A stretch of DNA of 41,260 nucleotides from Calidithermus chliarophilus DSM 9957 (GTDB lineage: Bacteria > Deinococcota > Deinococci > Deinococcales > Thermaceae), in assembly GCF_000430045.1 (NCBI RefSeq), contig NZ_KE387028.1, positions 89,781 to 131,040 on the forward strand. The letters run 5' to 3'. Position 1 is the first letter of the stretch. Every line of letters starts with the position of its first letter. The notes beneath the pieces were generated by a model that did not search any database, had not been told where the DNA came from, and saw only the letters and a list, made by a program, of their open reading frames with translations. A program made the translations under genes and the position numbers. Below are positions 8,402 to 25,741 of the stretch, piece by piece.

Positions 8402-9571
8402 CTACGCCGCGCGCCCCGCGGCCCCCTCCCAGGCCTGCAGGGCCCGCTCGAGCGCCTCCAGCGCGTCCGGCTCCCCCAGCGCCCAGCGTGCCGCGTGCTG
8501 GAGCACGAAGAACTCCAGCACCATCCCCTCCACCAGCACGCCGGGCAGCTCCCCGTCGCGCGCGGCCTGCACCAGGCGGCGGTAGCGCTCGAAGTCCCGG
8601 GGTGGGGCCGGGGCCGCCCCAGCCCCCAGCAGCACCGGCTCGGGCTGCTCGCCACGCAGCATCGCGTCCACCGCCGCCGCCAGGTCCGGGTAGACCGCGA
8701 AGCGCCCCTTGCCCCGCACTTCCAGGGCCATCCCGAACACCGGCCGCCCCCGCCGGCGGCGGCTGTCGGGGTCCGGGCGGCCGATCAGGGGCCACAGCAC
8801 CGGGTTCTCCAGCACGTCGCGCAGCACCCGGCCGTGCACCGTGACGATGCCCTTGATCCCCCGCTTGCCGATGGTCTCCACCACCGCCACATCCTCGGGG
8901 AAGCCCACCTCGTCACCTACGATGACCTGCGGGCCGTGGTTGGCCAGGGCCTCGAGGTAGGTGCGCGCCAGCATGGCCGGGAAGGTCTCCCCCGCCGCGT
9001 AGTCGGGCATGGGCACCTGCAGCCGCCGCGCCGCCCCCAGCACCGGGTGGGGCACCAGCCCCTCCCCGCCGATCTCGTTGGAGGTGTCGACCACCACCAC
9101 CTTGGGGCCGAGGTCTGCGGCCAGCTGGCGCACCACGTCGCGCAGGAAGGTGGTCTTGCCCACCCCCGGCGGGCCGATCACCAGCACCCCGTCGGCCCGG
9201 CGCACGAAGGGCATCACCGCGTCGGCCACCCCCTCGACCACCCGCGCCAGGCGGATGGTCAGCCCGGCCAGGGTGCGGTAGCGGTCGCGGATGGCGCTGA
9301 TGCGGTGCAGGGTGCCGCCGATGCCCGCGCGGCCGTCCTCACGGAACTCCACCCCGTAGCGGCTGGAGAGCTTGGCCTGGATGTTGGCGAGGTCGTCGGG
9401 GCCGAAGTGCTGCGAGCCGTAGCGCGGAGGCGGCGCGCCGCACCAGTAGCCGGGAAGCCGTCCCACGTCGAGGGCGATCTCCTCGAGCTCGTCCTTGTAG
9501 GCGCGGGCCTCGGCCGCGACCCACTCCGGCAGCACCTCGAGGATGCGCTCGAGCTGGTCGATGGGCCTCAT
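8402..9571 (-). CDS. SpoIIIAA/Ycf45-like AAA ATPase
   Basis: Residues 133-140 form a Walker A (GPPGVGKT), and VVVVDTSNEIGG near 159-170 followed by HPVLGAARRLQVP is the hallmark of the Ycf45/SpoIIIAA-type ATPases; VIVGDEVGF near 206 supplies Walker B and KGIVTVHGRVLRDVLENP the sensor region. The 389-residue length and a helical N-terminal region fit the family, though no R3H domain is seen at the C-terminus. The cellular role of plasmid-borne members is not known to me. It overlaps the upstream small membrane gene by ATGA and lies between parA and the VirD4-like gene, so a part in transfer or maintenance is possible. Confidence 0.78.
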   Translation of the reverse strand: MRPIDQLERILEVLPEWVAAEARAYKDELEEIALDVGRLPGYWCGAPPPRYGSQHFGPDDLANIQAKLSSRYGVEFREDGRAGIGGTLHRISAIRDRYRTLAGLTIRLARVVEGVADAVMPFVRRADGVLVIGPPGVGKTTFLRDVVRQLAADLGPKVVVVDTSNEIGGEGLVPHPVLGAARRLQVPMPDYAAGETFPAMLARTYLEALANHGPQVIVGDEVGFPEDVAVVETIGKRGIKGIVTVHGRVLRDVLENPVLWPLIGRPDPDSRRRRGRPVFGMALEVRGKGRFAVYPDLAAAVDAMLRGEQPEPVLLGAGAAPAPPRDFERYRRLVQAARDGELPGVLVEGMVLEFFVLQHAARWALGEPDALEALERALQAWEGAAGRAA

Positions 9572-9942
9572 CAGGGCCGGGCGTCCTCTTGGTGCGCGGG
9601 CCTCCCGCCGCCGGAGGCGGCGGCGTCCCGAAGGGGATCGTTCGCCCGGTGCAGGGCCGCAGGCTGTCCTGACAGGGGATCGTCCGGTCGGTGCACAGAG
9701 CTTGCTCTGTCCCGAAGGGGGTCGTCCGATCGGTGCACGGGCGCGGCCCGTCCCGACAGGGGATCGTCCTCCGGCACGGTGGCCTTGCGGAGCTTGATCA
9801 GCTCGCTGGCGATGATCGCCAGCAGGATGGTCGACAGGCCCTGCACCACCCGGTCGCTCAGGATCCAGGCCAGGCCGAAGAACATCGCGCTGTAGTAGGT
9901 CAGGGCGAACAGCTTGGATTGCACGCGGCGTAGAATCTCCAT
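9571..9942 (-). CDS. small membrane protein with repeat-derived tail (123 aa)
   Basis: The first 55 residues hold two hydrophobic segments (LTYYSAMFFGLAWIL and GLSTILLAIIASELI), so the protein is probably a two-pass inner-membrane protein. From residue 59 on, the tail is almost wholly encoded by three tandem copies of the palindromic element (9621-9769), giving repeats of about 14 residues such as DDPLSGRAAPVHRS. ATG 9942 follows GGAGG at 6 bases. The gene lies between the PLD-like gene and the Ycf45-like ATPase (ATGA overlap). Function unknown; VirB-type small membrane subunits are one possibility but nothing shows it. Confidence 0.68.
   Translation of the reverse strand: MEILRRVQSKLFALTYYSAMFFGLAWILSDRVVQGLSTILLAIIASELIKLRKATVPEDDPLSGRAAPVHRSDDPLRDRASSVHRPDDPLSGQPAALHRANDPLRDAAASGGGRPAHQEDARP
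9621..9769. repeat. palindromic repeat elements, tandem array (copies 2-4)
   Basis: Three head-to-tail units of about 42 bp. Stem sequences differ but stay paired: AGAGC/GCTCT in the middle copy and CGGGC/GCCCG in the third. Unit edges read CCCGAAGGGG or CCCGACAGGGG then GATCGTCCG. All keep the 9571-9942 frame open. Confidence 0.8.
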
Positions 9943-9950
9943 CTTTCCTC

Positions 9951-10514
9951 CTATATCCGGCAGCGCAGCACCAGCTCCCCGGCGGCCAGGTAGGCCGTCG
10001 GGCGGCAGCGCCCCGCCTTCTCCCAGGTGCGGTTGAAGCGGTCGACCTCCACCGCCAGCCTCACGTAGTCCCGGGTCAGCGCGGTGGGCCGGGGGTCGAA
10101 GGCGTCCCCCGCCACCAGCGGCCCCTCCACCAGAACCCGCGAGTCCAGCAGTAGCAGGGGCGCGGTGCGCACCGCCTGCACCACCCGCACGAACAGCGGG
10201 CGCTCGGGGGCTAAGAAGGCCAGCGCCGCCCCGTAGCTGGAGGGCTCGTTGACCTGGGACGCCTCCAGGAGCACCAGCACCTGCACCCCCCGCTGCACCG
10301 CGGCGCGGTGCAGGGCCTGGGCGACGGGCGGGCTGTAGAGCCCCGGCGCCACGTACACCACCTGGCGCTGGGCCTGGTCGATGAGCGCGGCCACCTGCTC
10401 CACGCTGGCCACCGCCTCCGTGCCCGGCTGCCGGGCCAGCGCCACGCCCAGCAGCAGCGCCAGCAGCGCCAGCAGCGCCAGCAGCGCCAGCAGCGCCTGC
10501 GGGCGGCCCCTCAC
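9951..10514 (-). CDS. membrane-anchored PLD-like protein, HKD degenerate
   Basis: GTG 10514 overlaps the upstream stop (GTGA) and gives 187 residues. A single membrane anchor made of repeated Leu-Leu-Ala units (encoded by 9-bp DNA repeats) is followed by a phospholipase-D-like fold: EQVAALIDQAQRQVVYVAPG, ALHRAAVQRGVQVLVLLEAS and a strand pair LLLLDSRVLVEGPLVAG. The His-x-Lys pair of active PLD nucleases is missing at the expected place (AVRTAPLLLLD), so it is probably not catalytic, or the alignment is wrong. Position directly downstream of the coupling ATPase suggests a role in DNA processing or transfer. The longer upstream reading frame is not used. Confidence 0.62.
   Translation of the reverse strand: MRGRPQALLALLALLALLALLLGVALARQPGTEAVASVEQVAALIDQAQRQVVYVAPGLYSPPVAQALHRAAVQRGVQVLVLLEASQVNEPSSYGAALAFLAPERPLFVRVVQAVRTAPLLLLDSRVLVEGPLVAGDAFDPRPTALTRDYVRLAVEVDRFNRTWEKAGRCRPTAYLAAGELVLRCRI
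10450..10498. repeat. 9-bp tandem repeat coding for a membrane segment
   Basis: Coding strand units CTGCTGGCG repeat about four to five times and encode Leu-Leu-Ala in the anchor of the PLD-like protein. Copy-number change would lengthen or shorten the helix by 3 residues. Confidence 0.75.
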
Positions 10515-12916
10515 GCGCCTTCCCCCTCCTCCTGGGCCCACCCCCCGGCGGGGGCCTCGGCCGTGGAGCGGTAGCTGACGTACGCCTCCGCCTCCCACAG
10601 GGCGAGGTTGTGTCGCCCCCAGGGGCACTTGGCGGGCACCAGGTAGTGCAGGCCGCGGCGGTAGCGCACGAAGCCGTAACGCTGCAGCGCGGCGAGCTGC
10701 TCCGCGGGCAGCGGCACCAGGGTCAGCGCCTGGCTGAGGATGAAGCGGCTCACCCGGCCGGGGCGGCCCTCGGCCTGCACCGGGATCTTCTCCTGGGCCA
10801 CCCGCCGCATCCAGTCCTCGAAGACCCGCTGCGCCTCGGCGGGGGAGAGGTCATGGGGACGATCCCCTTCGGGACGGGCTGACGCCCGTACACCAGCCGG
10901 ACGATCCCCTGTCAGGACAGCCTGCGGCTGTGCACCAAGGGGTAGCCCCCCTTCGGGGGCGGGCAAGCCCGCCGCGCCAGACGCCCCCTCCGCCGGGGCC
11001 CCGGAGGGCGCGGCGGCAGCGGCCTGCGGCAGGGGGGCGGGCTCTTCCGCCGCGCCCTCGAGGAAGCGCCGCGCCTCGCGGATCCAGCGCTCGCCGATGC
11101 CCCGCTGCAGGTGGGCGTTCCTCCAGGCCAGCATCGCCCGGTGCACCCAGGCGACGGGGTTGCCCTCGGACTCCGGGCGCTCAATGGGGTAGCTGCGCAG
11201 CCGGATGGGCGGGAAGCCGCGCACCACGGCGATCAGCTCGCCCAGCTCCATGCGCTGCAGCTCGTCGATGTTGATGAGGGCGGTGGTCTTCTCCTCCGCG
11301 CTCACCGAGCGCACGACCTTCTTGCGGAACTCGTCGGGCACCTGGCTCTCGCCCACCCGGTACTGCTCGATGGACACCTCGCCGAGCACCTCCGACCAGT
11401 ACGCGGCGTCGTTCTGGGTGAAGGAGCCGGGCAGGATGATGGTGGTGCCGATGTTGTTGTCCACCGTGGCGGCCCAGCCGATCTCGCCGTAGATGTTCAT
11501 GGCCTGGCTGCGGTTCTGCAGCGCCATGTGCAGGCTGATGTTGCGGCTGCGCAGGGTGGCCAGGTCGTCGTTGAGGTTGGGCAGGAAGCCGAAGAGGGCG
11601 AACTCGTCGTAGTAGTAGTTGATGTGGATGGGCAGCGGCTTGCCCAGCCGCTCGGCCAGGGACAGCATGCGCCCGTCGAGGTAGCGCTTGAAGAACCGCA
11701 GGATGGCCCGCCCCGACGACCCCCGGATGTACGACTCCGGCAGCACCAGGTGGATCATGCCCGGGGTGAGGAGCACCTGGTCCAAGTCCACCTCCCGCTC
11801 CCCCGGGGAGAAGGTCTCCACGGCCGAGTCCAGGCGGAAGATCGTGAGGTCCTCGACCAGGCGGTTGATCGCCCCGCTGAAGACCTTCTTGTCGGTCTCG
11901 AGGGTGGAGCGGATCTCGTCGGCGGCGGCCCGGCGCCCGGCGAACCACTGGCGCAGCGACTCCATGCCCAGGTTGGCCACGTTGTAGACCTCGCGGAAGT
12001 TCCGCAGCTCGCGCGGGCCCAGCGCCAGGCCGTGGATGATGCCCGCCAGTAGCAGGCGGGCGTTGGCGGTGTAGACCTTGGCCCCGGGGTCCTCGCCGGC
12101 CTCGAGGTCGGGCGGGTAGATCAGCCGGGCGATGTCGAGGGCATGGTCGTAGCCTTTCACCTCGGCCAGCACCGGGATCTGGATGCCGTTGCCCCGCTCG
12201 AAGGGGTTGATGATCACCACCTGGCGTCCGAAAGCGCGGAAGTAGTCGCGCATGTCTACGTAAGAGTCGTTGGGGTTGGGGTACTTGGTGTCCAGCACCA
12301 CCGAGATATTGCCCTCGGCGGCGTCGAGGGCGATGCGCGGGCGGAAGCTGCCCACCGTCTTGCCGCCGCCGGTGCCGGCGTAGGTGATCGAGTGCACGTC
12401 GTTGATGCGCTTGGTGGGGCGCAGGAAGTGGCGCTTCTTGGGGGTCTGGGGGTCGGTCCACACCCCCAGGTAGCCGGTGAGGGTCGCCGGGGTCATCCCC
12501 TTGAGCGCCGCGTCAACGATCTGCTCGGGGCGGCGGCGCTCGACGAGGGGGGCGATGTCGTGCTCGTTGGCCCAGCGCTGGGTGAGGGTCTTGCGCGGCT
12601 GGAGTTTGCGCCGCTTGAGGATAGGAGAGAGCCCCACCACCAGCGCCACGAACGCCAGGGTGATCTCGGCGTTGCCCAGCGTGCCGCGCTGCAACGCCTG
12701 GGCGCAGGCGGGGTGGTTGAGGCAGCGCCAGTAAAACGCCGCCGGGGCCTCCGCCTTAAGGTAGGCGCCCCAGCCCGCCAGCTCCAGCCGCGCCCGGTTG
12801 GCCTCCATCTGCCGGAAGGTGACCCAGCCCAGCGCGCCCAGGCACGCCAGGGCCCACGCCACCCCCAGCAGCCGCCGCCGGGGGCTCAGCCGCGAGAAGA
12901 CCACCGCCCCGCTCAC
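10511..12916 (-). CDS. VirD4/TraG-family type IV coupling ATPase
   Basis: The 801-residue product starts at GTG 12916 (GTGA overlap with the transglycosylase stop); the longer frame is shadow. Two N-terminal hydrophobic segments (near residues 11-27 and 70-85) precede a Walker A AGTGGGKT (about 179-187) with [11 protein letters not shown], then INPFERGNG and Walker [18 protein letters not shown] (about 430). [20 protein letters not shown] and [15 protein letters not shown] match the VirD4/TraG motor. Such ATPases bring DNA to a secretion channel during conjugation. No relaxase or other VirB parts are in view. A Pro/Ala linker after residue 630 contains two palindromic-element copies; a further domain of about 110 residues ends the protein. 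Confidence 0.9.
10858..10948. repeat. palindromic repeat elements, two copies in coupling-protein gene
   Basis: Two tandem units lie in the opposite orientation relative to the host gene compared with the 9621 array. They encode peptides of the type [20 protein letters not shown] in the C-terminal linker. Confidence 0.8.
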
Positions 12917-13413
12917 GCGCCCCCCCTGCGCTTGAGCCAGCCGTAGATATAGAGCACGTCCCGCACGTACCGGCGGGTCTCGGGGAAGGGGGGAATGCCC
13001 CCGTACTTGCGCACCGCGGTCGGCCCGGCGTTGTAGGCCGCCAGGGCCCGCGGCCAGTCGCCGAAGGCCTCCCACAACGAGCGCAGGTAGCGGGCCGCGC
13101 CCCACAGGTTCCAGTCGGGGTTGTGCAGCCGGTCCGGCGGGATGCCCAGCCCCCGCGCGGTGGCCGGCATCAGCTGCCCCAGCCCCCGCGCGCCGTCGGG
13201 CGAGACGGCCTGCACGCAGTAGCGGCTCTCCACCCACACCAGCGCCCCCAGCAGCTCGGGCTCGAGGGCCTGGGCCCGGGCGTAACGCTCGGTCTTGGCC
13301 CACAGCTCCCCGGGGATGCGCCCGCAGGCCCAGGCCTGCGGGGCCAGCAGCGCCAGGCCCGCCCCGAGCCCGAGCCCCAGACGCAGCAGTGCGCAGCGCA
13401 ACGACCACACCAT
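12913..13413 (-). CDS. lytic transglycosylase (SLT domain), secreted
   Basis: A 166-residue protein with a signal peptide ending AQAWA-CG near residue 29-30 and a soluble lytic transglycosylase domain: ALVWVESRY (catalytic Glu62), [18 protein letters not shown], and the [22 protein letters not shown] segment. These enzymes cut peptidoglycan; small ones next to coupling proteins usually open the wall for secretion or conjugation machines. It is first in a chain of GTGA/ATGA-coupled genes leading through the VirD4-like ATPase. The start looks leaderless: TAGACT (13427-13422) ends 8 bases before ATG 13413. Confidence 0.9.
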
Positions 13414-13529: not shown

Positions 13530-14834
13530 CTACTCGTGCAGGGGGATGGGCACCGCCTTGATGAACTCCGGCACCTCCGGCACCGCGTAGACCGCATGGG
13601 CCCCCGCGGGGGCCCCGGGGTCGCCGAAGATCCCGGCCACGACCGGCACCCGCGGGGGCTCGGCGGGCCAGGGGGTGAAGCCGTCGGTGAGGACGACCAC
13701 CAGGTCCACCTTCGGGCGCAGCTCGAGGGCCGCCTCGATCCCCACGCGCATGTCGGTGCCCCCGCCGCCCAGCAGCACGACCTCGTGGGCGCGGCGGACC
13801 TTCTGGGCCTGGGCCGCGGCGGCGTCCACCGCGAGGGCCCACACCTCGGCGCCCGCCTTCCTCAGCAGCGCGTCCACCTCGGCCAGGGCGTGGGCCAGCA
13901 TGCGGTCGCTGACCGAGCCCGAGGTGTCGATGACCACCGCCACCCGCGGCCGCACGTCGTAGCTCCCCGGCATCAGCACCCGCCCGAAGGCCGCCTGGCG
14001 GCGGTAGGGCCGCTCGTAGGTCGCCCGGGCGCACCCTTGCACCCGGCGCAACCCCTCGCGCACCCGGCCCTGCAGGACCCGCCGCCAGGGGACGACGGGG
14101 TTCACGACCCCCTCGGCCCAGCGCACCATCCCCGCGGGCAGGGTGCCGCGTGAGCGGTGGTGCTCGAGCACCCGCCGGGCCACCTCCTCGCGCAGCTGCG
14201 CGGCCTGCACCTCGCCCACCGCGGGGTGCTCGGCGTGGTAGCGGGGCAGCTCCCAGGGCCGCTTGAGGCTGTCCGCCCTCGACCCATGGTCCCAGGTGGC
14301 CGCGGAGGACCGGCCCGGTTCCGCCGCGCCAGGGGGAGGGGAGGCGCCGTCGCCCTCGCCCTCAGCGCCCACCCCGCCGTCGAGCCCGTCCCCCTCCCCC
14401 TGGAAGGGGTCCTCCGCGCCCTGCTCGAGCAGGGCGCGGTAGTACGCCTCCTCCAGCCCGCCGGGCTCCAGGCCCAGGCGCTCGGGGTAGATAACCCCCT
14501 CGGGGAGGGTGAAGCCCAGCTCCTGCGCCCCGTCGTTGATGGCGGCGTCGGTGGCCAGGTTCCACAGCCGGTGGATCCGGCGGTCCACCCCCATCTCCCG
14601 CGCGCGGGCGTGGTGGGCCCGCAGCAGGTGCTCGAGCTCGTGCCACAGCACCCCCACGAGCTCGCGCTCGCTGAGCTTGTCCGCGAAGGAGGGGTTGACG
14701 TACAAACGCCAACCCTCGTCGACCGCCATGGTGGGCACCGCCTCGGTCGAGACCAGCCTCAGGGCCCACAGCCCCGGCGTGAAGTAGGGGGCCTTGCTGC
14801 CCAAACCCAACCGCGCAACCTTGATCTTCTCCAT
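13530..14834 (-). CDS. DUF2201/VWA-like putative metallopeptidase
   Basis: The 434-residue product has HELEH at 65-69 (WHELEHLLRAHH), a zinc-metallopeptidase-like motif, within the DUF2201 N-terminal domain, an acidic Gly/Pro linker (about 150-185), and a C-terminal von Willebrand A-like domain with VAVVIDTSGSVSD, the GGGGTDMRVG loop and VVVLTDGF. This two-domain architecture is a known family that usually sits beside a MoxR-type AAA ATPase; none is in this window. The substrate is unknown. It starts at ATG 14834 behind a class A promoter. Confidence 0.85.
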   Translation of the reverse strand: MEKIKVARLGLGSKAPYFTPGLWALRLVSTEAVPTMAVDEGWRLYVNPSFADKLSERELVGVLWHELEHLLRAHHARAREMGVDRRIHRLWNLATDAAINDGAQELGFTLPEGVIYPERLGLEPGGLEEAYYRALLEQGAEDPFQGEGDGLDGGVGAEGEGDGASPPPGAAEPGRSSAATWDHGSRADSLKRPWELPRYHAEHPAVGEVQAAQLREEVARRVLEHHRSRGTLPAGMVRWAEGVVNPVVPWRRVLQGRVREGLRRVQGCARATYERPYRRQAAFGRVLMPGSYDVRPRVAVVIDTSGSVSDRMLAHALAEVDALLRKAGAEVWALAVDAAAAQAQKVRRAHEVVLLGGGGTDMRVGIEAALELRPKVDLVVVLTDGFTPWPAEPPRVPVVAGIFGDPGAPAGAHAVYAVPEVPEFIKAVPIPLHE

Positions 14835-17315: not shown

Positions 17316-17924
17316 TCAGACCCCGCTGAGCCGCTCGAGCACCAGCGGGTCGTGGTAGCGCTCCAGCCCCAGCGACGCCCGCAACCCCGCCAGGGTGGGC
17401 CGGCGCTGGGCGGGGCCGGGCCGCAGCCAGCCGTAGGGCGTGGCCACGAGGTAGTCGCCCGCGCAGCGCAGCAGCGCGGCCGTGCCGTGGTCGCGGTCGA
17501 CCTCCAGCACCTCCCAGTCGCCCGCGGTCATCCCCCCCAGCAGCTCGGGCGGGGGGGAGAACTGCGCCAGGTAGTCCACCAGGCTGCGCCCGGCGAAGGC
17601 CTGCCAGCGGCGCTGCGAGAGGCGCCGCCGGGCGCGGTGGAAGGCCTCGAGGCGCTCGGGGGCGGCCTGCAGGATCAGCGGGTGGCGCGGGGTGAAGTAC
17701 GGCTCCTTGAGGCCCAGGCCGTCCCCCAGCCGGAGCACGAAGGGCTTCTCGCCGCGCACCCGCTTCCAGGCCAGCTCCGCCTCGCCCGAGCCCCCCAGGG
17801 GCTGGCGCAGGTAGCCGCGCGGGTGCTGGCGGTAGCGGACGAGCACCGCGGCGGCCGCCCCGCAGGGGACGCCCTCCAGGGCGCGCTGCAGCGCGCCCTC
17901 GTCACGGCCATGGACCACGGTCAC
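17316..17924 (-). CDS. hypothetical protein beside the origin (202 aa)
   Basis: No family recognised. A soluble, Arg-rich protein with LKEPYFTPRHPLILQAAPERLEAF in the middle and DYLAQFSPPPELLGGMTAGDWEVLEV later; the end looks helical. GTG 17924 overlaps the preceding stop as GTGA, so it is made with the 87-residue protein. The gene ends 20 bp from the last iteron; products of genes in this position often affect copy number, but no such evidence exists here. Confidence 0.68.
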   Translation of the reverse strand: MTVVHGRDEGALQRALEGVPCGAAAAVLVRYRQHPRGYLRQPLGGSGEAELAWKRVRGEKPFVLRLGDGLGLKEPYFTPRHPLILQAAPERLEAFHRARRRLSQRRWQAFAGRSLVDYLAQFSPPPELLGGMTAGDWEVLEVDRDHGTAALLRCAGDYLVATPYGWLRPGPAQRRPTLAGLRASLGLERYHDPLVLERLSGV

Positions 17925-18184
17925 GGCCTCGCCTCAAGCCCCAGCCGCTCCCTGACCAGCCGCACCGGCAGCAGGTTGCTGTAACCGGCACCCTGGGCCT
18001 CGACCTCGGCCCGCAGCAGGCAGGGGTCGGCGGCCAGGCCGCGAAGGAACAACGCCCGGCGGATGGCCTCGGGCGTCCAGTCGGGGTGCTGCTCGAGCAG
18101 CTCCTCCACCAGGCGGCTCAGGCGGCGCCGGCTGGGCGCCAGGGCGGGGCTCTTCTCGGGGATTGGGATCGCACTGTGCCTCAT
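17921..18184 (-). CDS. small hypothetical protein (87 aa)
   Basis: The true start is ATG 18184 behind a class A promoter; the longer upstream frame is not used. The product begins MRHSAIPIPEKSPALAPS, then has a basic helix (SRRRLSRLVEELLEQHPDWT) and a second helical unit rich in Leu and Arg. It could be a small DNA-binding or adaptor protein. It is coupled by GTGA to the 202-residue gene next to the origin. Confidence 0.65.
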   Translation of the reverse strand: MRHSAIPIPEKSPALAPSRRRLSRLVEELLEQHPDWTPEAIRRALFLRGLAADPCLLRAEVEAQGAGYSNLLPVRLVRERLGLEARP

Positions 18185-18188
18185 ATAA

Positions 18189-18210
18189 TCTCCTATGATG
18201 AATACATATA
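18189..18210 (-). promoter_or_regulatory. promoter with 5'-terminal Shine-Dalgarno (class A)
   Basis: TATATG (18210-18205), six bases, TCATAGGAGA (18198-18189), ATG at 18184. Confidence 0.68.
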
Positions 18211-18387
18211 TCACAGAATTGCCGGGCGCGGCAGCCGGGGAGCGGTGCCACCCGGCTCGTACCAGGGCTAGGGAGAATGGGCGCGAAGCTCCGGGTTTTG
18301 ATGCCAGCCCCAGCCTGTATTCGCCGGGGCCAGCCTTGAGGGCCAAGAGCGATCAGGGAGCTGGGGCGTGATCCGAGGGGTAGGCTG

Positions 18388-19041
18388 TCACCTGCTCAGC
18401 CTGTCGCTTTCACGAGGGGCAAGCCCGATGTGAATGATGTAGCGCTGGTTGCCCGATTTCCTGCGATACCGTTCGAACAGTTCCAACAGCTCGCGCTGGA
18501 GCGCTTTAGCGTCAGGAGGGTCTAGTAGCAGGGCATCGCTCCAGGTGTTGAGTACGGCGGGCACCCCATCGCCCAGAATATCCCAGGATCCCTTGCGGTC
18601 TTGGGACGGGTTGATAGTGAGCGTTCCGTCGAGCTCGAGCCTAATCTCCACCCCACGCTGGTGTAGAAGCTCCGGAGATGCCTGCTCTAGGGCCACCCAG
18701 AGCCTGTGGTTCCATACGCGTTCGGTGTGTTCGAAGTGCGCCATCGGAACCAGTTCTTGCGGCACTATGTACCGTTGTGCTCGGGCTTGATAGTACCTGA
18801 TTGGCCTTCCCACACGCCGCTCGACCTTGACCACCTCGAGAAGCCCCAAGCGTAGAAACTTATCCGCCCAGTAGTGAAGGTTCGGGATCGGTGTAGAGAG
18901 CTCCCCGGCGACCTGCCTCAGGCTGCGTGGCCCCTTCATGAAGGGCGCGAGGTAGACCAACGCCTCGGGCCGGGTCAACAGCTCCGCCGCTTTCCGGTCG
19001 TTAACGACCATCTCCGACCTATTCAGAGATTGATCTTCCAT
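18388..19041 (-). CDS. winged-helix transcriptional regulator of the RiPP-like island
   Basis: Residues about 20-80 form a winged-helix domain: RPEALVYLAPFMKGPRSLRQ, AGELSTPIPNLHYWADKFLRLG and LLEVVKVERRVGRPIRYYQA, in the style of ArsR-like regulators. The remaining 130 residues (VWNHRLWVALEQASPELLHQ, then a beta-rich segment) could sense a ligand. It is divergent from the radical SAM gene, 80 bp away, so it most likely controls the cluster and itself from the shared intergenic region. Codon use is less GC-biased than in the plasmid backbone. No Cys metal box is visible. Confidence 0.8.
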   Translation of the reverse strand: MEDQSLNRSEMVVNDRKAAELLTRPEALVYLAPFMKGPRSLRQVAGELSTPIPNLHYWADKFLRLGLLEVVKVERRVGRPIRYYQARAQRYIVPQELVPMAHFEHTERVWNHRLWVALEQASPELLHQRGVEIRLELDGTLTINPSQDRKGSWDILGDGVPAVLNTWSDALLLDPPDAKALQRELLELFERYRRKSGNQRYIIHIGLAPRESDRLSR

Positions 19042-19120
19042 TTTAACAAGGCTAACACATAGGATGCCTCCAGCTTCGTACAGCCCCTTGGGATCACTTT
19101 TTCAGGAAGCGAGGTGCAGG

Positions 19121-20491
19121 GTGAGCAGGCACTACGTGCCGACCAAGTACTTGAGCTACTCGACCTCCGAAACGGGCTCCCTCGTTATCTATAACACCCT
19201 CAATGGAGCGATCTGTGCGGTGCCGCCGGGGCAGGCCGCCTACGTCAAGGGGGCACTAAAGCGCAGCGCGCGGCACCGGGCTCCGCTAGAGGGCATTCTC
19301 CAGGACCTCAGCGAGGGCGGCTTCCTCATCCCCGAGGGCACAGACGAGAACGAGCTGCGCCACCTACAGTACCTGCGGAAGTACGATGATCACAGCTTGA
19401 GGCTCATCGTCATGCCCACGGAGGCGTGCAACTTCCGCTGCACCTACTGCTATGAATCGTTCGAGCGCGGCAAGATGCCGCCTGAACTGCGCGAGGGGAT
19501 TAAGCGGTTCGTGGCGACCCAGAGCAGGCTGGAACAATTTGATCTCAGCTGGTTCGGGGGTGAGCCGCTTCTCGCCGCCGATGTGGTTGTCGAGCTGACC
19601 CAACATTTCCACATCTACTGCCAGAGCCACGGGATCCGCTTCAGCTCGAGCCTGACAACCAACGGTTCCCTCCTCACCCCCGACCTCGCCGAGCAACTGC
19701 TCCCCTATGGCTTGTCGTTTCTCCAGATCACCCTAGACGGGGTTGAAGAAGAGCATGACAAGCGACGCGTGCCGATTGACGGCGCGCCCTCGTTTAGGCG
19801 GATCATGGATAACCTCCGCTACCTCAAGTCCACGAGCTACCCCTTCGTGGTATCCCTGCGGCACAACTTTGATCCCGAAGGGCTACGGCGTTTGGAGGAA
19901 TTCCTCCAGCTCCTCGCACAAGAGTTTGGTGGAGACCCTCGCTTCACCACCAGCTTCTACGCCATTGGCACCTGGGGCGGGGCGAATGACGACCGCCTCG
20001 AGGTGTGTGAGCAGGACTCGGCCTACCAAGCTGTCATGCGCGCCCGCCGGTTGGCGACCGAGGCGGGTCTGCGCAACACCTTTGTCCTGGAGAGCCTTCA
20101 GCCCAACGGAGTCGTGTGCTACGCGGCGAACCCGCGGTCGTTCGTGATCGGCTCGGACGGTCAAGTGTACAAGTGCACCGTGGAGCTAGACTACCATGAC
20201 CGGAACATCGTCGGGCGGCTTCACCCGGATGGCTCGATGGACCTGGACTGGCGCAAGGTTGCCCTGTGGTGCGAAACCAACGGGCTGGAGGAGGGCAAGA
20301 AGTGCTCGACCTGCTTCTTCAGCCCGAGCTGCTACGGGGCGGCCTGTCCAAAGGACTGGATGGACAGTGGCGATTGCCACTGCCCGACCGAGAAGGTGAC
20401 CATCCGGGAGACTCTCCAACTCATCCAGCTCGAGGCGACGATGCCCGAAGCCGATGGGGTCTCCGCTGGTCTGCAGTGTACGAGAGGCTGA
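19121..20491 (+). CDS. radical SAM/SPASM peptide maturase
   Basis: A 456-residue radical SAM enzyme. The iron-sulfur motif CNFRCTYC follows LIVMPTEA; further landmarks are WFGGEPLL, SLTTNGSLLT and LQITLDG. The N-terminal part (YSTSETGSLVIYNTLNGAICAV) resembles the peptide-recognition start of RiPP maturases. The C-terminal half is a SPASM domain binding auxiliary clusters: CYAANPRSFVIGSDGQVYKC, then CSTCFFSPSCYGAAC and CHC. Such enzymes form thioether, C-C or other crosslinks in precursor peptides. The likely substrate is encoded 143 bp downstream. GTG 19121 with GAGG just before it is preferred; ATG 19064 would add 19 residues. Confidence 0.9.
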   Translation: MSRHYVPTKYLSYSTSETGSLVIYNTLNGAICAVPPGQAAYVKGALKRSARHRAPLEGILQDLSEGGFLIPEGTDENELRHLQYLRKYDDHSLRLIVMPTEACNFRCTYCYESFERGKMPPELREGIKRFVATQSRLEQFDLSWFGGEPLLAADVVVELTQHFHIYCQSHGIRFSSSLTTNGSLLTPDLAEQLLPYGLSFLQITLDGVEEEHDKRRVPIDGAPSFRRIMDNLRYLKSTSYPFVVSLRHNFDPEGLRRLEEFLQLLAQEFGGDPRFTTSFYAIGTWGGANDDRLEVCEQDSAYQAVMRARRLATEAGLRNTFVLESLQPNGVVCYAANPRSFVIGSDGQVYKCTVELDYHDRNIVGRLHPDGSMDLDWRKVALWCETNGLEEGKKCSTCFFSPSCYGAACPKDWMDSGDCHCPTEKVTIRETLQLIQLEATMPEADGVSAGLQCTRG

Positions 20492-20607
20492 CCGCGCGGA
20501 ATCATGTGCGGCTTCGGCTGATCGGGAGGAGGGAGGTGATGTGCGGAGGCTCATAGAAACATCACGGTGATCGAAATAAACCTCAGCGTCATCCGATCGG
20601 TCTCGGG

Positions 20608-20628
20608 TATCAAGCGTTCGAATGGAGG
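20608..20628 (+). promoter_or_regulatory. possible weak class A-like promoter before precursor gene
   Basis: TATCAA (20608-20613), six bases, GAATGGAGG (20620-20628), ATG at 20635. The geometry resembles the class A promoters but the -10 is poor. The ribosome-binding site GGAGG with 6-base spacing is convincing on its own. Confidence 0.35.
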
Positions 20629-20634
20629 TAGACC

Positions 20635-20727
20635 ATGCAGGCCAAACAGATCAGGTGGATCGTAAAACCCGTGCAGGCCTCTCGACCCGGCACCCGTCCC
20701 AACACCAACGTCAACTGCCTCTGCTAG
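20635..20727 (+). CDS. candidate RiPP precursor peptide (30 aa)
   Basis: A 30-codon frame with a strong Shine-Dalgarno (GGAGG, 6 bases before ATG) directly after the radical SAM gene. The start MQAKQIRWIVKPVQ is a plausible leader with a hydrophobic RWIV patch; the C-terminal part is SRPGTRP then NTNVNCLC-stop, with Cys28 and a C-terminal Cys30. A terminal Cys is what LanD/EpiD-type flavoproteins decarboxylate, and such a protein is encoded next. A radical SAM enzyme could crosslink Cys28 or modify Asn/Thr/Val. A tight 17-bp hairpin follows the stop, as often seen behind highly expressed precursor genes. Translation has not been shown; that it is the precursor is inference from position and sequence. 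Confidence 0.68.
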   Translation: MQAKQIRWIVKPVQASRPGTRPNTNVNCLC

Positions 20728-20733
20728 GCAGCT

Positions 20734-20770
20734 CCGGTCCCGCCTAGCCGCTGCGGCTAGGCGGGACCGG
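20734..20770 (+). terminator. strong hairpin after precursor gene (attenuator or mRNA stabiliser)
   Basis: CCGGTCCCGCCTAGCCGC and its exact complement form a stem of 17 bp with a 3-base loop. There is no T-run and the operon continues, so it may act as a partial terminator or protect the precursor mRNA, raising peptide over enzyme levels. Confidence 0.7.
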
Positions 20771-20781
20771 AATGAACGACT

Positions 20782-21111
20782 ATGTCCTCCTCACTCTGTG
20801 ACAACCTGCTCGTTGGCGTATCGGGGGGCATACAGTGCGTCAACCTCCACAACTACCTATTCCACTTCCGAACGGTCCTGGCGAGGCAGGTTAAGGTGAT
20901 CATGACGCCGTCCGCGGCCAAGATGGTGAGCCCGGCCGTGCTGGAACTTTATCTTGATGACAGGGTTTTCGTGGACTTCTGGGACCGGTCTACCGAGGTG
21001 AAGACCCCCCACATCCAGCTGACCCGGTGGGCCGACTTGTTTGTGGTAGTTCGGGCGAGTGGGAAACAGGCATGGCGGCACCAACACCGGAAGAGGTCGT
21101 GCGGCACCTGA
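20782..21111 (+). CDS. short LanD/EpiD-like flavoprotein, truncated
   Basis: The first 85 residues match the homo-oligomeric flavin-containing Cys decarboxylase fold: NLLVGVSGGIQCVNLHNYL (usual GxIxxxN), VKVIMTPSAAKMVSPAVLEL, and TPHIQLTRWADLFVVV with the active-site His. These enzymes decarboxylate a C-terminal Cys of a peptide to an enethiol. Family members are usually about 180 residues. Here the match ends where PASANT should begin (reads RASGKQ), and the PxMNxxMW substrate clamp is missing in all three forward frames, so this is not a single frameshift. It is either a decayed gene or a minimal form helped by the overlapping small gene. The first codons overlap nothing upstream. Confidence 0.7.
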   Translation: MSSSLCDNLLVGVSGGIQCVNLHNYLFHFRTVLARQVKVIMTPSAAKMVSPAVLELYLDDRVFVDFWDRSTEVKTPHIQLTRWADLFVVVRASGKQAWRHQHRKRSCGT

Positions 21112-21269
21112 GACACGTGCGGATGAGGCGCCTCAAGGAGGAGTACTGGGACGAAGCCACCCGCGAAAAGCCCAAGACCCCCTTCCAGAGGAAGCTTGAG
21201 CGGCTGCAACTCATGACCGAGGCGGCGGCCGAACCCCCGCTTGTGAATCCGACCCCGACCCCACCGTGA
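21072..21269 (+). CDS. small charged protein of the RiPP-like cluster (65 aa)
   Basis: It overlaps the end of the flavoprotein gene by 40 bp in another frame. The product begins MAAPTPEEVVRHLRHVRMRR, continues as a strongly charged helix (LKEEYWDEATREKPKTPFQR) and ends in a Pro-rich tail. No family recognised. It occupies the place where the flavoprotein's C-terminal half should be, so it is either a new small component or filler left by a deletion. No clear Shine-Dalgarno except a weak ACAGG. Existence as a gene is uncertain. Confidence 0.45.
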   Translation: MAAPTPEEVVRHLRHVRMRRLKEEYWDEATREKPKTPFQRKLERLQLMTEAAAEPPLVNPTPTPP

Positions 21270-21323
21270 CCGGAGAAGCCGATCCGTAGGAGCCTCCTGC
21301 TCACCGGACTGCAAGGTACGAAC

Positions 21324-22619
21324 GTGCAAGCTACCCCACCGTATTCCAGCATCTTCCGCAACCCTGCGTTCCTGGCGTTCTGGGCGGCGCAGACTGTCTC
21401 TTCGGCAGGGGACGCTGTTCGCCGCATGACCCTGCTGCTGTGGGTCTTCGCCGAGAGCGGCCAGTCTGGCCTGGCTATCGCTGCGATTACCGTTGCAGAG
21501 ACGGTACCCTACCTGTTGCTCAGCCCCCTGGCCGGGGTGTTCGTGGACCGCTTTAACCGGCGGGCCATCCTGGTCGGGGCCGACCTGGCCCGCGCTCTGC
21601 TCAGCCTGGCGCTGGTCTACGCGGTGGTCAGCCACAGCCTGTGGTTGGTCTACCCGGTCATACTACTAGCCACACTGTTCTCAGCTGTCGCGGAGGTGGC
21701 CGCCGGCACCGTGCTGCCCCGCGTCGTCGAAGACCGCCAGCTCGAGCAGGGCAACGGGTTGCTCGTCATCGGCCAGCAGGCCGCCCTCATCGCGGGCCCG
21801 GCCCTGGGCGCCGTGCTCTACACGACTGTGGGCCCAGGAGTGGCTTTCGTGGCGGACGCTGCCACCTTCTTGTTATCGGCGCTGCTCATCGGGCTAGCGC
21901 TGCCCCCCCACCGCCTTCAGCCCACAGAATCAGGGACTCCATCCCGGGGGCGGAGTTCATTGTGGGGCGATATCCGTGCGGGCCTCCGCTATCTTCTCGG
22001 TGCGCGCCTGATTCTGGCTAACTTCGCCATCACCTCCACAACCGCTCTGGCCGCGGGGATCAATGGCACCGTGATGATCTTCTTCATCACGAGAACCCTT
22101 GGCCACAACGCGCCTGACTTAGCTTGGCTCGCCGCCACCAACGGCGTCGCCCAGATGCTGGTGGGCGGCTACGTCGTCTGGCTGGCCCACCGGGCCCGGC
22201 TCGAGCGCCTGCTGGCCGCCAGTCTCGGCCTGATGGCCCTCGGGGCGACCCTGGTGGCCGCCGCGTGGAGCCTGCCCGTGCTGGTGCTGGGGGTGATCCT
22301 CACCTCCCTGGGCAACGCCCCCTTCAACATCGCCCGCGACACCCTGGACCAGCGCTACGTCCCCCCGTCCTACCTCGGGCGCGTGCGCAGCGCGGTAGAC
22401 ATGTCCACGACGGCCCTGTTCCTCGCGGCCTCGAGCCTGTCGGGCTATCTGGTCCCGCTGCTCGAGCCCCGCGCCCTGCTGTCGGCGTCCGCCACCATCT
22501 CGGTGATCGTGGCGCTGGCGGGCTGGCTCGTCCTGGTGCCCCTGCTGAAGAGAGCCAGCCCGCCTTCGGAAGGAAGCGTAGCGGCTCAGGGGCAGGAAGA
22601 TCATGTCAGACAGCCATAA
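21324..22619 (+). CDS. MFS transporter, probable peptide exporter
   Basis: A 431-residue protein with about twelve hydrophobic segments and the start FRNPAFLAFWAAQTVSSAGDAV, close to MFS exporters of the drug-efflux MFS_3 kind; the loop FVDRFNRRAILVGAD matches the conserved motif between helices 2 and 3. No ATPase is present, so export would be proton-driven. Placed between the flavoprotein region and the peptidase gene, it probably exports or gives immunity to the modified peptide. The start is GTG 21324 with AAGG about 9 bases before. The end overlaps the peptidase start by 17 bp. Confidence 0.88.
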   Translation: MQATPPYSSIFRNPAFLAFWAAQTVSSAGDAVRRMTLLLWVFAESGQSGLAIAAITVAETVPYLLLSPLAGVFVDRFNRRAILVGADLARALLSLALVYAVVSHSLWLVYPVILLATLFSAVAEVAAGTVLPRVVEDRQLEQGNGLLVIGQQAALIAGPALGAVLYTTVGPGVAFVADAATFLLSALLIGLALPPHRLQPTESGTPSRGRSSLWGDIRAGLRYLLGARLILANFAITSTTALAAGINGTVMIFFITRTLGHNAPDLAWLAATNGVAQMLVGGYVVWLAHRARLERLLAASLGLMALGATLVAAAWSLPVLVLGVILTSLGNAPFNIARDTLDQRYVPPSYLGRVRSAVDMSTTALFLAASSLSGYLVPLLEPRALLSASATISVIVALAGWLVLVPLLKRASPPSEGSVAAQGQEDHVRQP

Positions 22620-24657
22620 CCCTAAGCCTGACGAATTCGCTTGGTTGGAAGACCTGTGCGATCCGCGGACAAGGCGCTTCCTCGAGGACGAGAACACCCG
22701 CGTCGAGAGGTTTCTCGCGGGGCACGTCGGGCTCTACCGTGCTGTCATAAGCGAGCTCATGGCCCTGAGGAGTGTGTTTACGGAGTCACCGGCCATGCCG
22801 GTTGGCAACTACCTCTATTACGACCGCACGGATTCGCCTGACGGATGGCCCGTTTTCTGCCGCCGCCGGGTGGGGACTTTGGAAGAGGAGGTGCTCGTAG
22901 ACGTGGGAGAGTTGGCCTCCGAGCGTGGGAGCCTACATGCCATGGTCGGCTCGGTCAAGCCCAACGATGACCATAGCAAGATCGCACTGTCCATTGACCT
23001 TACTGGGCACGAGCGGTATACAGTGCTGGTTAGGGATCTCGAGAATGGCAGATTCTTGGAGGAAATACCCGACGTATACGCTGATTTCGAGTGGTCGCCG
23101 GACGGAAAGGGCCTCTATCTTCTGGGGCTGAGCGAGTCAGGGCGGCCCGAGCGCTTGCTGTTCCGGCCACTCGGGCCGCAGGGAGTAGGCCACCAGACCC
23201 TGCTGGTTGAACCAAACGAGCATTATGCGCTCACGCTCGCGCGTTCGCGCAGCCGGGCCTATCTTTTCGTGACCTCGGTCGGTGCCGAGGACACCGAGGT
23301 CCATTACCTCGAGCTGGACCGTCCGAATCGCCCGGTACAGCTGTTTTATCAGCGCAGAGAGAGGCTACGCTACTGGCTGGAGCACTGCCGGGATCGCTTC
23401 GCGGTGTTGACGAACCTCGACCGGACAGATCTCCGTGTGATGTTTGCTCCCTGCGAACCAACCCCGCCAGAGGGATGGATCGAGGCGCTTAGTCCAGCCG
23501 AGGGGGTCGTTTCAGGGATGGACGCCTTCGCCAGCCACCTGGTCATCTACGGCCACGAGAACGGGTGCGGGCGGATTTGGGTCCATGACCTGGCACAGGG
23601 AGAGACTTGGCCAATCCCAGCCCCTGAAGCCGGGGTGCCGGAAGGTCTCGGGGTGTTTTCTCCAGCCGAAAACGGTGACTACCACGCTCGCTGGTTCCGG
23701 TTCGAGTTCAGCTCCCTGGTCACACCGGAGGGACTTTGGGAGGTCGACCTGGAAACGCGATCGGTGCGGCTGGTCCATCGCCACAGCATCCCGGGCTACG
23801 ACTCCGGGAACTACTGCGCGGAGCGAGTCTGGGCCGAGACCGACGACGGGAGCGCTATCCCGATCTCTCTGGTCTACCGCCACGGTTGCGCCGCGGGAAC
23901 CGTACGCCCGTTGTATCTCTACGTCTACGGGGCATACGGCGCGGTCACCAGCCCTAGCTTCAGCCCCTTCCGCCTGCCTCTGCTGGACCGGGGTGTGGCC
24001 TTCGCTATTGGGCATATCCGCGGCGGGGGCGAGCGGGGCCAGGCCTGGCACGACGGGGGGAGGCGGCTGAACAAGCGCAATGCGGCCCTCGACGTGATTG
24101 CCTGCGCCCAACACCTTATCCGCGAGGGCTATGCCTGTCCCGATTCCTTGGTGCTCGCGGGTGTCAGCGCGGGTGGGGCGGCGGTGGGCGCCGCGCTCAA
24201 CGCGCGGCCCGACCTGTTCCGGGCGGTGGTGGCTAGGGTGCCGTTCGTGGATGTTGTGGGCGGGATGCTCGACGAAACCAGCGCTCTCTCGGCCCTGGAG
24301 ACCGCCGAATGGGGCGACCCAGACGCCCCAGACGAGCTCGCCTACATGTTCTCGTACTCGCCTTATCAGAACCTCAAGCCCGGCCGTTACCCCGCCATCC
24401 TGGCGGTGGGGGCCATGAACGACACGAGAGTGCCGTACTGGATGCCCGCGAAGTGGGTGGCCCGCATCCGAAGCTATCGCACCGGCCGCAACCGGCTCCT
24501 CCTGAAGACCCACCTGGATACGGGCCATCTGGGGGCGGGGAACCTGATCGACGAACTCGAGGACGCCGCCCTGGAGTGGGCCTTTGTGTTGGCCTGTGTC
24601 GGTCGAGACACCCACGGAGATATAGCCGAAAAGGCCACAACGCAGGCTTGTCCGTAG
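22603..24657 (+). CDS. prolyl-oligopeptidase family (S9) serine peptidase
   Basis: A 684-residue cytoplasmic-type S9 peptidase with no signal peptide. The N-terminus EFAWLEDLCDPRTRRFLEDEN and following beta-propeller (blades with YADFEWSPDGKGLYLLG) lead into an alpha/beta-hydrolase domain: YLYVYGAYG, HIRGGGERGQAWHDGG, nucleophile GVSAGG (Ser about 521), Asp about 606 in NDTRVPYW and His about 643 in TGHLG. Full length and all catalytic residues suggest an active enzyme. S9 oligopeptidases cut short peptides, often after Pro, and in some RiPP pathways remove the leader; the precursor has Pro at 12, 18 and 22. Overlap with the MFS gene indicates co-translation. Confidence 0.92.
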   Translation: MSDSHNPKPDEFAWLEDLCDPRTRRFLEDENTRVERFLAGHVGLYRAVISELMALRSVFTESPAMPVGNYLYYDRTDSPDGWPVFCRRRVGTLEEEVLVDVGELASERGSLHAMVGSVKPNDDHSKIALSIDLTGHERYTVLVRDLENGRFLEEIPDVYADFEWSPDGKGLYLLGLSESGRPERLLFRPLGPQGVGHQTLLVEPNEHYALTLARSRSRAYLFVTSVGAEDTEVHYLELDRPNRPVQLFYQRRERLRYWLEHCRDRFAVLTNLDRTDLRVMFAPCEPTPPEGWIEALSPAEGVVSGMDAFASHLVIYGHENGCGRIWVHDLAQGETWPIPAPEAGVPEGLGVFSPAENGDYHARWFRFEFSSLVTPEGLWEVDLETRSVRLVHRHSIPGYDSGNYCAERVWAETDDGSAIPISLVYRHGCAAGTVRPLYLYVYGAYGAVTSPSFSPFRLPLLDRGVAFAIGHIRGGGERGQAWHDGGRRLNKRNAALDVIACAQHLIREGYACPDSLVLAGVSAGGAAVGAALNARPDLFRAVVARVPFVDVVGGMLDETSALSALETAEWGDPDAPDELAYMFSYSPYQNLKPGRYPAILAVGAMNDTRVPYWMPAKWVARIRSYRTGRNRLLLKTHLDTGHLGAGNLIDELEDAALEWAFVLACVGRDTHGDIAEKATTQACP

Positions 24658-25186
24658 GGGCTCGGCGGGATCTGCGCCCGTTTCCCTCGACTGCTAGCCG
24701 CTGCCTTCCACCGGACGGGTGTGTGTTCCCCTGAGGCCCCTGCATGCACACGAAGGCGCGGGGCCCGCTCCGGCCCCGCGCCGCCCCTCCGCAAGACGAT
24801 TTAGCCCTGGTGCCCGGGCACCTCTGCCGCAGGACGTACCCCCTCCGCGACGGCCCGGGCCAGGCCTGGGGGGCTTATGACGCGCCTCGGGACGGCAAGG
24901 CTCGAATGCGATGGGGCGGGGCCTACCCGAGGAGTAGCCGCCGCCGCCTGCCCGGTCTCGCCCCCGCGCGCCCTGTACCCCTGGCCGGGCCTCGGAGCGC
25001 GAGGTTTGCCGAAGGGGCGCATTGGTTGCCCCGGCGGGCGGTGTGAGGTCCGTTTCCCCCCCGGCTCCCGGCAGCGAGCTGGGGACCCGGACACGGGCCG
25101 TTCCCGTTTGCGCTCTCGCGCGACCATCCAGGCGGATCACGGCCCCATCCTAGCCGAGGCTGCCCGAGCAGTCAATATATATTTCC
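24658..25186. other. gene-poor stretch at the island's right edge
   Basis: About 530 bp without a supportable gene on either strand; the open frames lack family resemblance, ribosome-binding sites and plausible composition. It contains the hairpin at 24754-24781 and probably marks the border between the inserted island and the plasmid backbone. No direct repeats or attachment site could be recognised. Confidence 0.5.
24754..24781 (+). terminator. terminator-like hairpin
   Basis: GGCGCGGGGCC-CGCTCC-GGCCCCGCGCC, an 11-bp stem about 100 bp past the peptidase stop; no T-tract. Confidence 0.45.
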
Positions 25187-25741
25187 TCAATAGGACTTTG
25201 CGGGCACCACCCCGGCCAGCGGGCGGCGGGCCCCGATGTAGCGGCCCGCGTAGCGGCTCAGGGGCTCGACCACCACGCCCCCGCGGGCCTGGCTGGCGTG
25301 GGCCATCAGGCCGTCCCACAGCACCAGGCCCACGTGGTCCACCGGCCGACCCGGCGCGCGGAAGAACACCAGATCCCCCGGCAGCAGGTAGGCGGTGGTG
25401 ACGGGCGGGAGGCGGGTGTACTGCTTGAGGGCGGTGCGCGGCAGCCGCCAGCCCAGGTGGGCGTAGACGCGCTGGACGAAGGCCGAGCAGTCGAGCCCCA
25501 CGCGCGGGTCGGTGCCGCCCCAGAGGTAGGGCGTGCCGTAGTAGGCCTGCACCAGGCGGTAGAGCTGCCGGGGGTCCACCGGTGGACGATCCCCTATCGG
25601 GAGGGCCTGCGGCCCTGCACCAGCCGGACGATCCCCTTCGGGACGGGCTGACACGGGCGCGGTCCCTCCCGGCTGGGCGGCCGCGAACGCGACGGCCGCC
25701 AGCAGCAGTATGGCGGCGGCCCGGGCCACGGCCGGGCTCAC
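25187..25741 (-). CDS. secreted NlpC/P60 peptidoglycan endopeptidase
   Basis: GTG 25741 overlaps the upstream stop (GTGA) and gives 184 residues; the long frame upstream is shadow. A signal peptide (AVARAAAILLLAAVAFAAA) is followed by a linker encoded by two palindromic-element copies and an NlpC/P60 domain: YYGTPYLWGGTDPRVGLDCS with catalytic Cys about 85, LPGDLVFFRAPG, and DHVGLVLWDGLMAHAS with catalytic His. Such enzymes cut stem peptides in the wall. Together with the lytic transglycosylase at 12913 it could help build a channel through the envelope. Confidence 0.88.
   Translation of the reverse strand: MSPAVARAAAILLLAAVAFAAAQPGGTAPVSARPEGDRPAGAGPQALPIGDRPPVDPRQLYRLVQAYYGTPYLWGGTDPRVGLDCSAFVQRVYAHLGWRLPRTALKQYTRLPPVTTAYLLPGDLVFFRAPGRPVDHVGLVLWDGLMAHASQARGGVVVEPLSRYAGRYIGARRPLAGVVPAKSY
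25586..25659. repeat. palindromic repeat elements, two copies in NlpC/P60 gene
   Basis: Two tandem units with GACGATCCCCT(A/T)TCGGGA edges and stems GGGCC/GGCCC and CGGGC/GCCCG. They encode the [10 protein letters not shown] and LPIGDRP linker between signal peptide and enzyme domain. Confidence 0.8.

What the first reader, a model, noticed from the sequence alone, without database searches (positions are those of the whole stretch)
18388..24657. Candidate new RiPP biosynthetic cluster: radical SAM/SPASM enzyme plus LanD-like flavoprotein, tiny Cys-terminated peptide, MFS exporter and S9 peptidase
Seen: wHTH regulator (divergent), radical SAM with CNFRCTYC and a SPASM domain, a 30-codon peptide gene with a strong ribosome-binding site, a flavoprotein of the EpiD/LanD fold, an MFS transporter and a complete prolyl-oligopeptidase-like enzyme, all tightly packed. 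Known: LanD-type proteins decarboxylate a C-terminal Cys; radical SAM/SPASM enzymes crosslink peptides; S9 enzymes can remove leaders. Inference: the product is a short ribosomal peptide with a modified C-terminal Cys. No Ser/Thr dehydratase, cyclase or YcaO is present, so the usual aminovinyl-cysteine route is not available. I know no described class with this set.
Basis: partly seen in the sequence, partly recalled or inferred. Interest (0 to 1): 0.9.

Follow-up and report, generated by a model that had tools for sequence, protein, structure and literature searches.

The report
Radical-SAM peptide cluster with broken decarboxylase
A plasmid-borne gene cluster of a Thermus-like heat-loving bacterium looks built to make a small modified peptide from a 30-residue gene ending in Cys-Leu-Cys, pairing two enzyme types I found together nowhere else, but in this genome the second enzyme's gene is broken by a deletion and only the sister species C. 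roseus keeps it whole.

Summary
The cluster is real: wHTH gene, radical SAM/SPASM maturase, 30-codon ORF (MQAKQIRWIVKPVQASRPGTRPNTNVNCLC) with a GGAGGT ribosome site, flavoprotein, MFS exporter and S9 peptidase. One key correction: the window's flavoprotein is a 109-aa remnant. A 211-bp frameshifting deletion removed the core of the gene. Calidithermus roseus carries the same cluster almost identically, with an intact 232-aa flavoprotein whose best solved relative is MrsD, the mersacidin cysteine decarboxylase. No lanthipeptide dehydratase, LanC, YcaO or HopA1 gene was found in the C. roseus genome, so that copy probably works without the usual aminovinyl-cysteine partners. Radical SAM relatives (about 40% identity, no closer ones in about 85,000 species genomes) sit beside short conserved peptides: 29 of 29 Bacillota loci have a 28-residue peptide, 7 of 8 actinobacterial loci a peptide ending in Cys. 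None has the flavoprotein or S9 gene nearby. The peptide's sequence kinship to the Bacillota family is weak. Best reading: a RiPP cluster with a new enzyme combination; the product should carry a radical-SAM modification and, in C. roseus, a decarboxylated C-terminal Cys. In the window strain the second step is lost. Chemistry and product are untested.

The parts
18388..19041 (-). divergent wHTH-like regulator, 217 aa
   Evidence: ORF; no Pfam/NCBIfam assignment; one amino-acid change against C. roseus
19121..20491 (+). radical SAM/SPASM peptide maturase, 456 aa from GTG 19121; N-terminal RRE-like region inferred from its full-length fold match to CteB
   Evidence: Pfam Radical_SAM 1.1e-19; NCBIfam TIGR04463 199 bits, below cut-off 525; radical SAM and SPASM cysteines invariant in a 28-row alignment; AF2 pLDDT 83.9, Foldseek top hit CteB 7e-18 over 456 columns
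20624..20629 (+). Shine-Dalgarno GGAGGT, 5 nt before the peptide ATG
   Evidence: sequence; scan of the window
20635..20727 (+). candidate precursor peptide MQAKQIRWIVKPVQASRPGTRPNTNVNCLC
   Evidence: ORF and ribosome site; DNA identical in C. roseus
20733..20771 (+). 18-bp perfect RNA hairpin between peptide gene and flavoprotein gene, -43 kcal/mol; the one difference from C. roseus in this spacer lies in the loop
   Evidence: z = -5.9
20782..21111 (+). truncated HFCD flavoprotein, 109 aa; C. roseus homologue (L020:9719-10417) is 232 aa
21048..21049 (.). junction of the 211-bp deletion that frameshifts the flavoprotein gene
   Evidence: search of the own genome finds the gene in two pieces
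21049..21269 (+). out-of-frame 3' remnant of the flavoprotein gene
21324..22619 (+). MFS exporter, 431 aa
   Evidence: Pfam MFS_1 2.9e-30 and MFS_3
22603..24657 (+). S9 oligopeptidase-B-like peptidase, 684 aa, overlapping the end of the MFS gene; catalytic Ser, Asp and His present

Best explanation
This is a small, horizontally moved RiPP cluster. The radical SAM/SPASM enzyme, with an N-terminal leader-binding (RRE-like) region, modifies the 30-residue peptide, probably by a thioether or other cross-link involving Asn/Cys of the NTNVNCLC end. In the intact (C. roseus) form the MrsD-like flavoprotein oxidatively decarboxylates the terminal Cys to an enethiol, which must be trapped, perhaps by a group the radical enzyme has made. 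The S9 peptidase trims the leader and the MFS protein exports the product. In the window strain the decarboxylase gene is broken, so the product would keep a normal C-terminal Cys, or the pathway is failing. Shown by computation: gene content, the deletion, the intact homologue, the fold families, and the lack of the usual dehydration partners in C. roseus. Inferred: that this peptide is the substrate, the cross-link, the order of steps and the export.
For: Compact co-directional genes with an overlapping MFS/S9 pair. Lower GC (about 60-67%) than the 72-75% backbone. Cluster genes differ by only a few bases each between genomes whose CoaBC locus is 94% identical, so it moved recently. Radical SAM cysteines intact; fold match to CteB, the SCIFF thioether maturase, and to TigE, SuiB and ChlB. 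Related enzymes sit beside conserved short peptides. C. roseus flavoprotein best matches MrsD (9e-31), keeps the active-site His and PSMNPSMW, and is separate from the housekeeping CoaBC in both genomes. LanD enzymes are shown to act on a C-terminal Cys (PMC12291118). S9 peptidases remove leaders (FlaP, PMC10885120), and an S9 gene lies beside an HFCD gene in a class V lanthipeptide cluster.
Against: Only two near-identical copies exist, so selection on the peptide cannot be measured. The Bacillota peptide family model scores this peptide at only 3.1 bits, reached by 209 of 5000 shuffles. Those peptides have no Cys, so the ancestral chemistry need not involve Cys. The flavoprotein is broken here. 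NCBIfam scores the intact flavoprotein highest with CoaBC, though below cut-off. The S9 enzyme is oligopeptidase-B-like (a family that cuts after Arg/Lys), and two of the three Arg residues in the peptide precede Pro.
Confidence: 0.66

Rival explanations
1. The cluster in this strain is a decaying passenger: the loss of the flavoprotein has ended the pathway and the other genes are intact only because the deletion is recent.
For: 211-bp frameshifting deletion; recent transfer on a plasmid-like contig.
Against: All other genes are open, and their few differences from C. roseus cause no truncation. A radical-SAM-only product could still be made.
Confidence: 0.3
2. Non-peptide pathway: radical SAM enzyme, flavoprotein and exporter act on a small thiol metabolite, and the 30-codon ORF is chance.
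For: HFCD flavoproteins also work outside RiPPs (CoaC), and several plasmid genes annotated as flavoprotein lie away from any RiPP gene.
Against: The radical SAM enzyme belongs to a clade with adjacent peptides and models as a peptide maturase; strong ribosome site on the ORF; C-terminal Cys exactly where a LanD-type enzyme needs it.
Confidence: 0.12
3. Ordinary AviMeCys RiPP with dehydration in trans: the class III LanKC on the same contig dehydrates Thr24 and the enethiol of Cys30 adds to it.
For: LanKC gene on the same contig; Thr24 lies six residues before Cys30.
Against: C. roseus, which has the intact flavoprotein, has no LanC-like, LanB, YcaO or HopA1 match in its genome. The LanKC genes are tens of kb away with their own class III precursors. 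In the window strain the flavoprotein is broken.
Confidence: 0.06
4. The radical SAM enzyme modifies a Cys-free part of the peptide, as its Bacillota relatives must, and the flavoprotein alone handles the C-terminal Cys, giving a product with no thioether.
For: All 29 Bacillota peptides lack Cys, and the radical SAM enzymes are about 40% identical.
Against: Actinobacterial and Deinococcota relatives pair with peptides whose Cys lies at or near the C-terminus.
Confidence: 0.25

Closest known systems
TIGR04463 / Clo7bot / CefB / PapB / CteB group of radical SAM/SPASM RiPP maturases
   Same: Domain order, cysteine pattern, small peptide gene alongside; best NCBIfam match TIGR04463 at 199 bits, best fold match CteB
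   Different: Below every curated NCBIfam cut-off; precursor is a 30-residue peptide, not Cys-rich; accompanied by an HFCD flavoprotein
MrsD/EpiD (LanD) peptidyl-cysteine decarboxylases of AviCys RiPPs
   Same: HFCD fold with motifs present in the C. roseus copy; precursor ends in Cys; an HFCD with about 40% identity lies in a Priestia lantibiotic cluster
   Different: No dehydratase, cyclase or kinase-like partner in the cluster; broken in the window
Class V lanthipeptide cluster with HFCD plus S9 peptidase (Nonomuraea plasmid)
   Same: HFCD gene and prolyl-oligopeptidase gene in one RiPP cluster
   Different: Uses LxmK/HopA1-type dehydration and an LLM oxidoreductase, no radical SAM gene; its S9 enzyme is only 28% identical
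Bacillota radical SAM plus 28-aa '...KSVPGNLK' peptide pairs
   Same: Among the nearest radical SAM relatives (about 40%), peptide directly beside the enzyme gene
   Different: Cys-free peptide, no flavoprotein or S9 gene nearby

Membership tests
RiPP cluster (general) | Short ribosomal peptide gene next to a peptide-modifying enzyme | tested here: met
   ORF with GGAGGT; radical SAM clade with adjacent peptides
RiPP cluster (general) | Peptide shown to be modified | not testable with these tools
   needs expression and mass spectrometry
AviCys/AviMeCys RiPP | Intact HFCD cysteine decarboxylase in the cluster | tested here: not met
   truncated in the window by a 211-bp deletion; intact only in C. 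roseus
AviCys/AviMeCys RiPP | Precursor ends in Cys | tested here: met
   ...NVNCLC
AviCys/AviMeCys RiPP | Ser/Thr dehydratase (LanB, LanKC/LanM, HopA1 type) serving the pathway | tested here: not met
   none in the cluster; none in the C. roseus genome by PF04738, PF05147, PF17914; kinase-only dehydratases not searched genome-wide
Sactipeptide/ranthipeptide | RRE-bearing radical SAM/SPASM maturase | tested here: met
   the RRE part rests on the full-length fold match
Sactipeptide/ranthipeptide | Thioether from Cys to another residue | not testable with these tools
   two Cys in the peptide make it possible
TIGR04463 maturase family | Score above the curated cut-off (525 bits) | tested here: not met
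   199.1 bits
CoaBC (coenzyme A pathway) | Fused CoaB ligase domain | tested here: not met
   232 aa without CoaB; housekeeping CoaBC elsewhere in both genomes
Bacillota 28-aa peptide family | Peptide matches the family profile | tested here: inconclusive
   3.1 bits, 209/5000 shuffles as good; shared hydrophobic-hydrophobic-[RK]-P-[AVPS] motif, 0.9% of shuffles, motif chosen after inspection

The most novel reading that the evidence does not exclude
A new RiPP class in which a radical SAM enzyme, not a dehydratase, creates the partner site that traps a LanD-made enethiol, giving a dehydratase-free aminovinyl thioether; the window strain is a natural decarboxylase-null variant of it.
Probability: 0.25. 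Interest if true: 0.8.

Novelty: new variant of a known kind. Interest (0 to 1): 0.56.

Why it matters
LanD-type enzymes are known from pathways where a dehydrated residue captures the unstable enethiol. A compact cluster with a radical SAM enzyme instead, in a genome where the dehydratase and cyclase families searched were not found, makes it directly testable whether radical chemistry can supply the partner. The window/C. roseus pair offers an intact and a decarboxylase-broken version of the same thermophile pathway.

Tried and rejected
Kinship of the peptide to the Bacillota family by profile HMM: not significant. Absence of the PPC-decarboxylase cysteine as a LanD signature: uninformative, because the Deinococcota CoaBC proteins aligned lack it too. 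Search for other radical SAM plus HFCD pairs: none near any of the radical SAM relatives nor beside the HFCD genes on plasmids that I opened. Literature searches for the pairing or for the NCBIfam names FlmE/OhkG gave no description in the open library. Firm placement of the radical SAM protein in the tree failed: it is a long branch at an unresolved fork. A structure prediction for the flavoprotein was not run: the alignment to MrsD already answered the motif question.

Full report
What is there. Reading frames around 18.3-24.7 kb give a divergent wHTH-like ORF, then on the + strand a radical SAM gene, a 30-codon ORF, a flavoprotein-like ORF, an MFS gene and an S9 peptidase gene that overlaps it. 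Pfam and NCBIfam confirm the radical SAM, MFS and S9 assignments; the radical SAM protein is nearest to TIGR04463 (199 bits) but under all curated cut-offs. Homologues start near GTG 19121 rather than ATG 19064, which leaves about 80 bases for promoters.

The broken flavoprotein. The ORF at 20782-21111 is 109 aa and covers only the first half of the HFCD profile. Calidithermus roseus NBRC 110900 (L020; its contig has the same 21,645-bp length as G025 contig 145) has the same cluster, with a 232-aa flavoprotein. Aligned base by base, the window lacks 211 bases at 21048/21049; the deletion shifts the frame and removes the PACADI and PSMNPSMW motifs. A search of the window's own genome finds the gene in two pieces. 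All other genes are open and differ by only a few bases. I cannot exclude an assembly error without reads.

The intact flavoprotein. Its best solved relatives are MrsD (9e-31) and another mersacidin decarboxylase entry, ahead of CoaBC and EpiD. Both genomes keep a separate CoaBC. On plasmids, the highest-scoring stand-alone relatives listed are Priestia flavoproteins; the one opened lies in a lantibiotic cluster. NCBIfam, however, scores it highest with CoaBC (below cut-off), and Thermus CoaBC proteins score almost as well, so its peptide role rests largely on context.

The radical SAM enzyme and its relatives. A scan of about 85,000 species genomes found C. roseus at 100% and nothing else above about 41%; across the 111 Deinococcota genomes held, matches were at most 43% over part of the protein. 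The cysteines of the radical SAM site and SPASM domain are invariant. The AlphaFold2 model (pLDDT 83.9) matches CteB over its full length, then TigE, anSME, ChlB and SuiB. Beside the relatives lie short peptides: in all 29 Bacillota loci of the ~40% group a peptide of about 28 residues ending ...KSVPGNLK or close to it; in 7 of 8 actinobacterial loci a 24-25-residue peptide ending in Cys; in four of the six Deinococcota loci examined longer peptides with Cys near the C-terminus. None of these loci has the flavoprotein or the S9 protein; a few have weak MFS matches.

Is the peptide real? It has GGAGGT five bases before ATG, which on the + strand no other ORF of 20-65 codons in the window has at that spacing, and is followed by an 18-bp RNA hairpin of -43 kcal/mol whose one difference from C. 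roseus lies in the loop. Its DNA is identical in the two genomes. By sequence it is not significantly like the Bacillota peptides, apart from a short IVKPV motif that 0.9% of shuffles reach and that I chose after looking. So the ORF is a good candidate, not a proven precursor.

Mobility. The stretch 17777-25408 is about 99.5-99.6% identical between the two genomes outside the deletion, and the rest of the window does not match that contig, while a CoaBC stretch is 94% identical. GC is lower than the backbone. The window carries partition, conjugation-like and pilus-ATPase genes, assigned by eye. This fits recent plasmid transfer.

Mechanism. LanD enzymes oxidatively decarboxylate a C-terminal Cys to an unstable enethiol (RosD: PMC12291118), which in known pathways is trapped by a dehydrated residue, often with a kinase-fold partner (also PMC9415263). 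C. roseus has no match for PF04738, PF05147, PF02624 or PF17914, so if its flavoprotein works on this peptide, another partner is needed; the radical SAM enzyme is the only candidate in the cluster. S9 peptidases cut RiPP leaders (FlaP cuts after Pro; PMC10885120); cutting after Pro22 would release NTNVNCLC. The S9 enzyme here is an oligopeptidase B relative with an intact triad, about 40% identical to a chromosomal paralogue. These steps are inference.

Verdict. A real RiPP-type cluster with an enzyme pairing not seen in the collections searched, known from one cluster in two genomes, one of which has lost the second enzyme.

Noticed in passing
G000:C8:11510-14329 (L119), minus strand, with small ORFs at 14441-14762: Class III lanthipeptide synthetase (LanKC, NF038151 above cut-off) with two precursor-like peptides (MSRILALQKLVPQGTSRPAPQHLSTLSVICSSQNAGCP; MRRILALQKLSSQVARPAPQGWSAISTNCSSNSNGC) on the same contig as the window.
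   Followed up: partly
G000:C8 about 52.8-55.6 kb (L120:10821-13569), minus strand: Second LanKC-like locus, split into overlapping 468- and 538-aa frames (possible frameshift), with a class III precursor-like peptide MRKNVLKLQRLQVKDKRVNGMVMPSCSSCYSSSCTGGGCQTTYCP (NF038160 just above cut-off).
   Followed up: partly
G000:C3:1-5000 and G000:C7:1-5000 (L122, L123): YcaO genes at two contig ends, with a LanB-like gene beside the C3 copy: a possible azole or thiopeptide-type cluster split or duplicated by assembly.
   Followed up: no
L021-L043, L046-L048, L058, L059, L064, just downstream of the radical SAM gene: An unnamed two-gene system in Bacillota: radical SAM/SPASM enzyme plus a Cys-free peptide of about 28 residues (consensus about MRxLRPAxSPxxxxxTGKIxKSVPGNLK), with no NCBIfam or Pfam entry for the peptide.
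   Followed up: partly
L045, L049-L053, L063 (Nocardiopsidaceae and Actinomadura): Radical SAM relatives preceded by a 24-25-residue acidic peptide ending in Cys (e.g. ...VIDFGC); in L052 also with SDR, VinK-like acyltransferase, AMP ligase and JmjC genes nearby.
   Followed up: partly
L071, L073 (Deinococcota): Two divergent peptides beside the radical SAM gene, one ending GCNTNCNANC or GCNTNCNSNC.
   Followed up: no
L065, L066 (Deinococcus plasmids): Radical SAM gene directly after an oxidoreductase gene (LLM class in L066), with pitrilysin-type and, in L066, lantibiotic-dehydratase genes on the other strand.
   Followed up: no
window 6771-13408 and 36331-40181: Plasmid-like backbone by eye: ParA/ParB, VirB11- and VirD4-like ATPases, PilB/PilT-like ATPases.
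   Followed up: no
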